DNA of 64,000 nucleotides from Eubacteriales bacterium (lineage in GTDB: Bacteria > Bacillota > Clostridia > Oscillospirales > CAG-382). A program made the position numbers and the translations under genes. Position 1 is the first letter of the stretch, and each line of letters begins with the position of its first letter. The notes beneath the pieces are model-generated. The model saw only the letters and a program-made list of their open reading frames with translations, was not told the DNA's origin and made no database searches. This document shows, piece after piece, positions 55,674 through 58,654 of the stretch. Location: contig JAQVPJ010000001.1 of assembly GCA_028702135.1 (NCBI GenBank), forward strand, positions 1 to 64,000. The letters run 5' to 3'.

Positions 55674-57440
55674 ATGGAAAACGCTCAAATTAACGAGCTG
55701 CATATTCTGCGGCATACGGCATCTCATATTCTCGCTCAGGCAGTCAAGCGTCTTTACCCAGAAGCAAAGCTTGCCATTGGACCTGCTATAGAAAACGGCT
55801 TTTATTATGACATCGACTGCGAGGTGAGCTTCACTCCCGAGGTTCTTGGCAGAATCGAAAAGGAAATGAAGAATATTACGGGCGAAAATTTAAAAATCGA
55901 GAGGTTCGTGCTTACAAGACCAGACGCTCTTGAACTGATGAAGAATGAGCCTTATAAGATCGAGCTTATAAATGAGTTGCCGGAGGACGCTGAAATTTCC
56001 TTCTATAAGCAGGGGGAGTTCACGGATCTTTGTTCGGGTCCTCACCTAAACTACACAAAAAAGCTGAAAGCGTTTAAGCTCACTCAGTCGACCGGCGCTT
56101 ACTGGCGCGGCGACTCGAAGAACAAAATGCTTCAGCGAATATATGGAACTGCCTTTAAAACACAGGATGAGCTTGAAAAATATCTCGCTGAGGTTGAAGA
56201 GGCAAAGAAGCGAGACCACAACAAATTAGGCCGCCAGCTTGAGTATTTTACCACTTCGGATATGATCGGTCAGGGATTGCCGATAATTCTCCCGAAAGGA
56301 ACGGTAATAATGCGTACTCTACAACGTTTTGTTGAGGACGAGGAGGAACGCAGGGGTTATTTACAGACAAAAACACCGTTTATGGCAAAAAGAGATCTGT
56401 ATAAGGTCAGCGGGCATTGGGATCATTATCGTGACGGTATGTTTATTATGGGAGATCCGGATGAGTTTGAAAACCCGGAAGCGGAGATTTTTGCACTGCG
56501 GCCGATGACCTGCCCTTTCCAGTTTCAGGCATACCTCACAAAGACCCGTTCATATAAGGATCTGCCTTTAAGATACAACGAGACCTCGACTTTGTTCCGC
56601 AACGAGGCAAGCGGTGAAATGCACGGTCTTATCAGAGTGCGTCAGTTTACCATTTCCGAGGGACATATAGCCTGCACTCCCGAACAGCTTGAAGGTGAAT
56701 TTTCCGACGCTCTCGATCTTGCACAGTATATGTTGAAAACTCTCGGACTTGATGAGGATGTATCATATCGCTTTTCAAAATGGGACGAGAACGACAAGGA
56801 AAAGTATATAGGCGACCACAATAAGTGGGAGGCCGTCCAGTCAACCATGCGCAGCATCCTTGACAACATTGGGATTGACTATTACGAAGCGGATGGAGAA
56901 GCGGCGTTCTACGGTCCGAAACTTGACATACAGATCAGGAACGTACACGGCAAGGAGGACACTCTTATCACAATCCAAATCGATTTCCAGCTCGCGGAGC
57001 GTTTCGGTATGGAGTATGTTGATAAAGACAACATTAAAAAGTATCCTTATGTCATACACCGTACTTCCATCGGCTGTTATGAGCGCACTCTCGCGCTTCT
57101 TATAGAGAAGTTCGCTGGTGCGATGCCTACATGGCTCGCTCCCGAGCAGGCAAGGGTAATTCCGATAACGGATTTTCAAAACGATTATGCCGAAGGTGTT
57201 CTTGCCCGACTGAAAAACGCAGGACTGCGTGTCAGCAACGATACCCGCAGCGAAAAATTGGGCTACAAAATACGCGAGGCTCAACTCGAAAAGCTGCCTT
57301 ATATGCTCGTTATCGGCGAAAAGGAAAAATCTAACGGAACAGTCGGCGTAAGAAGCCGAAAAAGCGGCGACTTGGGTGAGATGTCCGTTGACGCTTTTGT
57401 GGAGCTTATTCAAAAGGAAATATCCGCAAGGGAAAAATAA
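55674..57440 (+). CDS. thrS: Threonine-tRNA ligase
   Basis: HTASHILAQAVKRLYP; MTCPFQFQAYLTKTRSYKDLPLRYNETSTLFRNEASGEMHGLIRVRQFTISEGHIAC. Confidence 0.96.
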   Translation: MENAQINELHILRHTASHILAQAVKRLYPEAKLAIGPAIENGFYYDIDCEVSFTPEVLGRIEKEMKNITGENLKIERFVLTRPDALELMKNEPYKIELINELPEDAEISFYKQGEFTDLCSGPHLNYTKKLKAFKLTQSTGAYWRGDSKNKMLQRIYGTAFKTQDELEKYLAEVEEAKKRDHNKLGRQLEYFTTSDMIGQGLPIILPKGTVIMRTLQRFVEDEEERRGYLQTKTPFMAKRDLYKVSGHWDHYRDGMFIMGDPDEFENPEAEIFALRPMTCPFQFQAYLTKTRSYKDLPLRYNETSTLFRNEASGEMHGLIRVRQFTISEGHIACTPEQLEGEFSDALDLAQYMLKTLGLDEDVSYRFSKWDENDKEKYIGDHNKWEAVQSTMRSILDNIGIDYYEADGEAAFYGPKLDIQIRNVHGKEDTLITIQIDFQLAERFGMEYVDKDNIKKYPYVIHRTSIGCYERTLALLIEKFAGAMPTWLAPEQARVIPITDFQNDYAEGVLARLKNAGLRVSNDTRSEKLGYKIREAQLEKLPYMLVIGEKEKSNGTVGVRSRKSGDLGEMSVDAFVELIQKEISAREK

Positions 57441-57442
57441 AA

Positions 57443-57826
57443 AATTATAAAGCAAAAAAAGAGCGGATGCCGTTTAGTTGAGGCGCAGTAACGAAGTTTT
57501 TTATAATTGAAACAAAGCAGGCACTTGTGAAGCACAAAAATGTGTGTCAAAAGTGCCTTTGCGTTCTTTTTGACAAAATGCTTGTCCTGATTGTATTTTA
57601 GTAATGCGTTTGCCTTCGGCAAATGTGATGTCGCACACACTGTGTGCAGTGATGAATTTCGGCGATGCCGAAAAGTGATGCGATGCTTGCCTATCACGCA
57701 CCGCAGTGCGCATCACACCGAAGGTGCATTACACGCGTCAGCGTACATCACTTGCCCGAAGAGCAAGCATCACTATGGGCACGCCCGATAATTTAGGATA
57801 AAACCTTCGTTATCGAGCGTGCCCAT
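57443..57826. repeat. Noncoding hairpin-rich element (candidate interspersed repeat / structured RNA), core 57609-57826
   Basis: Consecutive short hairpins separated by GTGATG then CATCAC, bounded on the right by a 10-bp stem atgggcacgc/gcgtgcccat; left boundary uncertain. Confidence 0.7.
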
Positions 57827-57871
57827 TGGCAACCGCCTTTTTTGTTATAAATCAGTTTTTAATATCTTTGA

Positions 57872-58654
57872 CTATTTCTTCTTTTTTGTTGCAATATATG
57901 CGATTACAGCTATCAGAACAATAGCGGCAACACCCAAACCAATATATAGTATAGTATTGTTTTTCTCAGATTCAGCATCGGAATTATCCACCGAGTTTAC
58001 CCTTGATTCCTCTTTAGAGGTGTCATCTTTTACCTCGGAAGAATTACCATCTTTATCCGACTCCGTTGAAATGATATCGGACTCTTGTTTGGATTCCTCT
58101 TTGGAGGTGTCCTCTGAAGTTATATCATCTAAGGAAACATCGCTTGCACCTGCTGTGATATTGGCATCTGCGGCTACTGTGCCTGTTGTAAAATCAACAC
58201 CGGTAACCGTTACGAGATCGCCTTCTGACAGATTACTGATTGCTTTTAGGTTCGCGGATGATTTTACATAGATTTCAGATTCCATGTCGCGATCATCACA
58301 GTGACCGGTGTAAATAAACCCGCCCTCAGGTATTGTTATCTCGTTATAAGGTAGTCCGTCGGCGTTGACATCTACAGCAACAACCTCGAATACATTCTCT
58401 GCCGATGTAGGCTTGGCAGTAAAGAACGTAACCCATTTTAAGTTTGCTTCATTGGTGGTAATGGTGTTTGTGTCGTTAAAATCACTTGTAAAAATAGTGC
58501 CGGAACCTGCGGTAACTGATGCGTTGACTACAGTAACATAGATGGAATCCGCCGGTTCGATTTCTTCCGCCAATACGGGTACAACGAATGCAACCGAGAT
58601 TAACATCAGACATACTGTTGTCAAAGTGAAGAGTTTAAAGCCGATTTTTTTCAT
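57872..58654 (-). CDS. Secreted, C-terminally TM-anchored surface protein of unknown function
   Basis: Signal peptide MKKIGFKLFTLTTVCLMLISVAFVVPVLA; acidic Ser/Glu linker; C-terminal TM plus KKKK. Confidence 0.8.
   Translation of the reverse strand: MKKIGFKLFTLTTVCLMLISVAFVVPVLAEEIEPADSIYVTVVNASVTAGSGTIFTSDFNDTNTITTNEANLKWVTFFTAKPTSAENVFEVVAVDVNADGLPYNEITIPEGGFIYTGHCDDRDMESEIYVKSSANLKAISNLSEGDLVTVTGVDFTTGTVAADANITAGASDVSLDDITSEDTSKEESKQESDIISTESDKDGNSSEVKDDTSKEESRVNSVDNSDAESEKNNTILYIGLGVAAIVLIAVIAYIATKKKK

What the first reader, a model, noticed from the sequence alone, without database searches (positions are those of the whole stretch)
57609..57826. Symmetrical array of mini-hairpins separated by GTGATG (left) and CATCAC (right)
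Seen: consecutive stem-loops tttgcc-ttc-ggcaaa (57609-57623), gcacac-act-gtgtgc (57633-57647), tttcggc-gat-gccgaaa (57657-57673), cgcac-cgca-gtgcg (57697-57710), cacc-gaa-ggtg (57716-57726), acgc-gtca-gcgt (57733-57744), cttgc-ccgaaga-gcaag (57751-57767), and a long atgggcacgc...gcgtgcccat stem (57775-57826). Separators are GTGATG at 57625, 57649 and 57675, then (t)ATCAC at 57692, CATCAC at 57711, CATtAC at 57727, CATCAC at 57746 and 57768. GTGATG and CATCAC are exact reverse complements, so the array reads as one folded-back unit with its apex near 57681-57692. Stem sequences differ but all keep base pairing, which points to selection on structure. Not explained by coding, CRISPR or a simple terminator.
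Basis: partly seen in the sequence, partly recalled or inferred. Interest (0 to 1): 0.78.

Follow-up and report, generated by a model that had tools for sequence, protein, structure and literature searches.

The report
Orphan hairpin array of IVP elements
The row of small hairpins is real and is a stranded copy of a little-known kind of mobile DNA in Clostridia that usually sits right behind tRNA genes next to a gene for a small four-helix "IVP" protein, and whose hairpin-linking word changes in step with that protein, as a lock changes with its key.

Summary
Seven hairpins are joined by GTGATG on the left and CATCAC on the right: six exact separators in 160 nt, against at most two in 100 simulated windows. 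It is the only copy found in this genome. Relatives carry the same structure, including a long-range stem 80-85 nt apart whose sequence covaries (GATGCTTGC here; GATGTGTTCCGC, GATGTTTGCCC and TAAGTGTTCCGC elsewhere).

In relatives the arrays are not RAYT/REP elements. They lie directly 3' of a tRNA/tmRNA gene and its terminator, and many are followed by a promoter and a standalone four-helix-bundle gene (PF05635, 23S rRNA intervening-sequence protein, IVP). Of 82 IVP genes, 39 have a same-strand tRNA within 450 bp upstream, 0 an opposite-strand one. The separator word tracks the IVP clade: 16 classes need 16 changes on the tree, shuffled mean 36. One orthologous tRNA-Val site holds four different array types in four sister species.

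Reading: the window array is an IVP-less relic of a mobile element whose hairpin comb is probably the IVP's cognate nucleic-acid substrate. Mobility and co-diversification are well supported. Binding and the transposition chemistry are inferred. The open-access papers searched do not describe the pairing.

The parts
57609..57680 (.). Left arm: h1 (57609-57624), GTGATG 57625-57630, h2 (57631-57648), GTGATG 57649-57654, h3 (57655-57674), GTGATG 57675-57680
   Evidence: sequence; stems 6, 6 and 7 bp, shuffle p 0.004 or lower each
57682..57690 (.). P1 strand a, GATGCTTGC: central half of the long-range stem
   Evidence: exact complement of 57763-57771, 81 nt away; the same spacing (80-85 nt) with other sequences occurs in IVP-linked arrays
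57692..57773 (.). Right arm: tATCAC 57692-57697, h4 (57697-57710), CATCAC 57711-57716, h5 (57717-57726), CATTAC 57727-57732, h6 (57733-57745), CATCAC 57746-57751, h7 (57752-57767), CATCAC 57768-57773
   Evidence: same order of parts in L175-L178, L223-L252
57763..57771 (.). P1 strand b, GCAAGCATC: equals the conserved end GCGGAACACATC of relatives
   Evidence: compare
57775..57826 (.). Long hairpin next to the array end, in the position of the terminator hairpin of tRNA-linked relatives; T-run at about 57838-57843 on the + strand
   Evidence: sequence; folds; position compared
55674..57440 (+). thrS (threonyl-tRNA synthetase), flanking gene; ortholog in G002 has no array downstream
57872..58654 (-). 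Convergent flanking gene (secreted protein with C-terminal membrane anchor); likely ortholog next to thrS in G002, 87 nt after thrS with no array
   Evidence: no Pfam/NCBIfam match

Best explanation
The window array is an orphan (IVP-less) copy of a family of small mobile elements, here called IVP-array elements. A full element consists of a terminator-like hairpin, a comb of short hairpins joined by a fixed word (GTGATG) and then by its reverse complement (CATCAC), a sigma-70-like promoter, and a gene for a standalone four-helix-bundle protein (PF05635/TIGR02436; relatives are the S23/IVP proteins of 23S rRNA intervening sequences and Avd of diversity-generating retroelements). Elements insert most often directly 3' of tRNA and tmRNA genes. 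SHOWN: the array, its structural homology to arrays in relatives, P1 covariation, tRNA adjacency in one orientation, different elements at one orthologous tRNA site, and co-diversification of separator word and IVP clade. INFERRED: the IVP recognises the folded comb through its separator word and helps to copy or protect the element; the enzyme that cuts or copies is supplied in trans; in this genome the IVP has been lost and the array is a relic that may still fold or be mobilised in trans.
For: Same order of parts as relatives. P1 stem at constant 80-85 nt spacing with at least five different sequences, the window's GATGCTTGC/GCAAGCATC among them. Pattern for the array end hits 28 of 396 genomes of the order, patchily, with the backwards control at 0; of 49 distinct places 25 abut a tRNA/tmRNA (gap 35-48 nt), 14 are a second multi-copy class, 7 neither, 3 at a contig edge. 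39 of 82 IVP genes have a same-strand tRNA within 450 bp upstream, 0 opposite strand, 3 of 79 downstream. 44-46 IVP genes carry a significant inverted-separator array upstream. Separator similarity tracks IVP identity (Mantel r 0.60, 0 of 5000 permutations); 16 changes on the tree against 36 shuffled; IVP paralogs in one genome mostly carry different words. Inter-separator segments form stems of 5 bp or more in 36% against 1.6% shuffled. Promoter-like site between array and IVP in 19 of 34 against 1.4% shuffled. Orthologous tRNA-Val site: GTGATG array / GATGATATA array + IVP / ATTCCATA array / GTGAAAT array in four congeners; tRNA-Arg: two types in two species. Site without array in G002 next to thrS. 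IVPs match PF05635 (E about 1e-27) and TIGR02436 and PDB 2rld.
Against: G000 has no IVP, no IVP remnant near the array and no further array in the window or at 30 own tRNA loci; the window copy is not next to a tRNA, so its assignment rests on architecture alone. 38 of the 82 IVP loci showed no significant array by my test. No insertion event was observed and no catalytic enzyme is known. The tested classes partly reflect shared ancestry of protein and array as one linked unit, so co-diversification supports but does not prove binding. Some host relatedness is mixed into the tree test.
Confidence: 0.8

Rival explanations
1. REP/BIME-like palindromes moved by a RAYT (IS200/IS605-type tyrosine transposase).
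For: Hairpins with a fixed short word at the foot, arranged in both orientations, and a partner protein that co-varies with the word, as published for RAYTs and REPs (PMC2817692).
Against: The recurrent adjacent gene is PF05635, not a Y1 transposase. Stem sequences are free to vary between units, whereas a REP is a defined sequence. Copy number per genome is low.
Confidence: 0.06
2. A host RNA element: a 3' structure that insulates or terminates transcription between convergent genes, kept for the host.
For: It lies between two convergent 3' ends next to a terminator-like hairpin, folds very stably, and relatives sit behind tRNA terminators.
Against: Patchy presence, absence at the G002 site, different array classes at one orthologous tRNA site, linkage to a protein gene whose clade sets the separator word. 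tRNA-linked arrays lie beyond a complete terminator.
Confidence: 0.1
3. The array is an operator or leader: IVP binds it as duplex DNA next to its own promoter and only regulates its own gene; the unit spreads by ordinary recombination.
For: The array directly precedes a promoter-like site in many loci (19 of 34). Separator-protein co-variation fits a repressor-operator pair as well as a transposition pair.
Against: Conserved self-complementary hairpins with free sequence and the long-range P1 stem point to a folded single strand, not duplex operator words. Arrays without an IVP gene are widespread, and near-identical IVP-less copies are multi-copy in G011.
Confidence: 0.2
4. Chance or low-complexity artefact.
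For: Single copy in this genome.
Against: statistics; homologous architecture in dozens of genomes with zero backwards-control hits.
Confidence: 0.01

Closest known systems
23S rRNA intervening sequences (IVS) with the S23/IVP gene (e.g. Coxiella burnetii, PMC4990558)
   Same: Same protein family (PF05635), selfish-looking, long inverted-repeat structures, residence at genes for stable structured RNAs.
   Different: Here the gene is outside rRNA, behind tRNA/tmRNA genes; the comb of separator-linked hairpins lies upstream of the gene; the window copy has no IVP and no RNA gene beside it. RNase III excision untested.
REP/BIME palindromes with RAYT transposases (PMC2817692)
   Same: Short hairpins with a fixed word at the foot, inverted arrangements, co-variation of word and partner protein clade, orphan copies.
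   Different: Partner is a four-helix bundle without nuclease motifs; hairpin stems are free in sequence; location behind tRNAs; few copies per genome.
Diversity-generating retroelements (Avd + RT)
   Same: Avd is a structural relative of IVP (PMC10053308) and works with a structured RNA.
   Different: No RT, template repeat or variable repeat was seen near the loci inspected.
tRNA-targeting integrative elements (tyrosine integrases)
   Same: Integration next to tRNA 3' ends in one orientation.
   Different: No integrase and no duplicated tRNA 3' end at the distal boundary in the cases viewed; elements are only about 0.2-0.8 kb.

Membership tests
IVP-array elements (defined here) | Hairpins joined by one word on the left and its reverse complement on the right | tested here: met
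IVP-array elements (defined here) | Long-range P1 stem 80-85 nt apart between array end and centre | tested here: met
   GATGCTTGC/GCAAGCATC, 81 nt
IVP-array elements (defined here) | Terminator-like hairpin directly next to the P1 end | tested here: met
   57775-57826 hairpin, 1 nt after the last CATCAC
IVP-array elements (defined here) | Adjacent IVP (PF05635) gene | tested here: not met
   None in G000, no remnant; also absent at many homologous arrays, so the window copy is filed as an orphan
IVP-array elements (defined here) | Position 3' of a tRNA/tmRNA | tested here: not met
   No tRNA beside the window array; 14 of 49 relatives' sites are a non-tRNA class
23S rRNA IVS | Located inside a 23S rRNA gene | tested here: not met
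   Intergenic, no rRNA match in the window
23S rRNA IVS | Encodes S23/IVP | tested here: not met
REP/BIME-RAYT | RAYT gene flanked by the repeats | tested here: not met
   Neighbours in the array loci examined are IVP or ordinary genes; genome-wide Y1 search not done
CRISPR array | Long identical repeats with unique spacers | tested here: not met
   Only 6-nt words are repeated; spacers are hairpins

The most novel reading that the evidence does not exclude
A separate class of minimal mobile elements in Clostridia made of a hairpin comb plus an Avd/S23-like four-helix protein, in which the protein recognises its own comb through the separator word and guides insertion at the 3' ends of tRNA and tmRNA genes, possibly with the tRNA 3' end as primer for copying, as DGR Avd assists RNA-primed cDNA synthesis. 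23S rRNA and RNase P RNA intervening sequences would be other branches of the same system.
Probability: 0.4. Interest if true: 0.9.

Novelty: new variant of a known kind. Interest (0 to 1): 0.74.

Why it matters
IVP/S23 four-helix proteins have been known from 23S rRNA intervening sequences without a known function or ligand. The arrays offer a concrete candidate ligand with a built-in specificity code: about 16 separator classes matched to protein clades, so binding and specificity can be tested by swapping words. If right, it links rRNA intervening sequences, tRNA-linked repeats and DGR accessory proteins in one scheme of selfish elements that home to structured RNA genes.

Tried and rejected
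DNA similarity search of the array in its own genome: single copy. Genome-wide contig scan with a loose separator pattern: mostly chance hits in unrelated phyla, used only for L111. Viral contigs: no relative of the IVP. Rfam: no family. CRISPR and coding explanations rejected. RAYT rejected as the recurrent partner. IVP remnant beside the window array: none. A snap-back origin of the tRNA-adjacent terminator (its stem sometimes runs into the tRNA CCA end) was considered and left open, because ordinary tRNA terminators in G000 also start right at CCA. Paper searches found no description of arrays with IVP genes; subscription papers are not held.

Full report
OBSERVATION. The sequence at 57609-57773 is as described. 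It lies in the 431-nt gap between the stop of thrS (57440) and the stop of a convergent gene for an anchored secreted protein (57872-58654, minus strand). Six exact GTGATG/CATCAC words fall within 160 nt; in 100 third-order Markov windows of 64 kb the maximum was two. The region folds far better than its shuffles as RNA on both strands and as DNA. Left hairpins have 6-7 bp stems; the right ones are shorter and individually marginal. No Rfam family matches.

ONE COPY HERE, MANY IN RELATIVES. The array is single in its genome by sequence and by pattern, and no other array of any separator was seen in the window or at 30 tRNA loci of the genome. In the family, a three-fold GTGATG pattern hits 10 of 63 genomes with no hit of the backwards control. 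Reading these loci shows one architecture: two to three hairpin units with GTGATG, a centre GATGTGTTCCGC-TCACGC-hairpin, two to three units with CATCAC, then GTTCCGC-loop-GCGGAACACATC, then a terminator hairpin. The window has every one of these parts, with GATGCTTGC in place of GATGTGTTCCGC and GCAAGCATC in place of GCGGAACACATC. A search for the longest exact long-range pair in 16 arrays returned the P1 stem at 80-85 nt in most, with sequences GATGCTTGC (window), GATGTGTTCCGC, GATGTTTGCCC, TAAGTGTTCCGC and TAAGTGTGCC; in L276 and L277 another pair was longer. This is covariation at constant spacing. A pattern for the array end hits 28 of 396 genomes of the order, in at least nine families and patchily, control zero.

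WHAT ACCOMPANIES THE ARRAYS. Of 49 distinct places of that pattern, 25 abut a tRNA or tmRNA (many kinds, gap 35-48 nt), 14 belong to a second multi-copy class with a CGCCGAGTGTCCTTAAGAACACTCGGCG hairpin end, 7 fit neither (some look like broken tRNAs) and 3 are at contig edges. On the far side several arrays run into a TTTACA-N17-TATAAT promoter and a gene for a 117-119 aa protein. That protein is a four-helix-bundle IVP: PF05635 at E about 1e-27, TIGR02436 at 1e-31, PDB 2rld as the closest solved sequence. Starting from the protein instead, PF05635 occurs in 67 of 149 genomes of the order, up to nine copies each, and not in G000. I collected about 90 IVP loci. Of 82 with enough upstream sequence, 39 have a same-strand tRNA/tmRNA within 450 bp upstream, none on the opposite strand; 3 of 79 have one downstream. 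About half carry a significant inverted-separator array upstream.

THE SEPARATOR FOLLOWS THE PROTEIN. GTGATG is only one word. Others are GTGAAG, ATGATG, AATGAAG, TGAAATA, GAAATCC, TGAATTG, AACATC, GTGATA and more. Separator similarity correlates with IVP identity (Mantel r 0.60, 0 of 5000 permutations), and IVP paralogs within one genome mostly have different words. On a tree of 47 IVPs the 16 word classes need 16 changes, one above the minimum; shuffles need 36 on average, none as low. The word classes were assigned by me from the output. Segments between separators form 5-bp stems in 36% against 1.6% in shuffles, although their sequences differ. A promoter-like site lies between array and gene in 19 of 34 against 1.4% shuffled.

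MOBILITY. At one orthologous tRNA-Val locus four congeners hold four different contents: a GTGATG array without IVP (G006), a GATGATATA array with an IVP gene (G026), an ATTCCATA array without IVP (G033) and a GTGAAAT array (G018, contig end). The tRNA and its leader are conserved, as is the distal YitT gene where the contig reaches it, while even the terminators differ, so elements appear to start right after the tRNA CCA end. At tRNA-Arg two species hold two types. G011 carries several near-identical IVP-less copies at different places; two related copies in other genomes (L235, L248) sit inside the loop of a palindrome. G034 and G007 differ by an apparent internal deletion that leaves only the IVP C-terminus behind the array in G007. 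For the window copy, G002 has thrS and the likely orthologous convergent gene 87 nt apart with no array.

MECHANISM. Shown: structure, covariation, tRNA linkage in one orientation, repeated occupation of one site, protein-word co-diversification. Inferred: the IVP binds the comb through the word and takes part in the element's propagation or protection. The promoter sits downstream of the array, so the array is probably not in the IVP mRNA; this favours a DNA-level role or a tRNA-readthrough RNA. The chemistry is unknown. One speculative route is copying primed by a tRNA 3' end, by analogy with RNA-primed cDNA synthesis in Avd-dependent DGRs (own knowledge). An operator-repressor reading of the same pairing remains possible.

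COMPARISON AND NOVELTY. The protein family is known from rRNA intervening sequences (PMC4990558) and resembles Avd (PMC10053308). The logic resembles RAYT/REP co-evolution (PMC2817692). The window array fails the defining features of IVS (not in rRNA, no IVP) and of RAYT/REP (no RAYT neighbour found at homologous loci). Outside the order, IVP genes sit inside 23S rRNA and, in two genomes, inside the RNase P RNA gene, which supports a general taste for structured RNA genes. I found no open-access description of the array-IVP pairing. I therefore rate it a new variant of a known kind (IVP/S23 selfish elements), with a real chance that it deserves its own class.

Noticed in passing
L448 (G463:C1, near 403844-404161) and L451 (G537:C40): An IVP gene with flanking inverted repeats lies inside the RNase P RNA gene (class A, in the loop after model position 136); Rfam matches the full 367 positions around a roughly 400-nt insert.
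   Followed up: partly
L439, L446, L455 (other orders of the phylum): Classic 23S rRNA intervening sequences with IVP genes, confirmed or suggested by LSU matches.
   Followed up: partly
L394 (G018:C35) and L396 (G033:C2): tRNA-Arg(CCT) is broken after the anticodon loop and followed by tRNA-like fragments with the same CCTCCTAAG anticodon stem-loop; looks like an integration hotspot.
   Followed up: no
L175-L178, L228, L235-L237, L248, L408 (G011, G051, G102, G022, G084, G281): About 308-bp IVP-less elements with the GTGATG/ATGATG array and a TGTCCTTAAGAACA hairpin end, near-identical across genomes of different families; L235 and L248 sit in the loop of a palindrome.
   Followed up: partly
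L428, L434, L436, L438, L441 upstream of IVP genes: In other orders IVP genes are preceded by simple tandem words (AGGAGTCAGGAGACAGG, ACTAGTAACTAGTATCTAG, GTGATGAGTGATGAG) instead of hairpin combs.
   Followed up: no
window 57519-57572: A second hairpin with T-run after thrS, probably its own terminator, left of the array.
   Followed up: no
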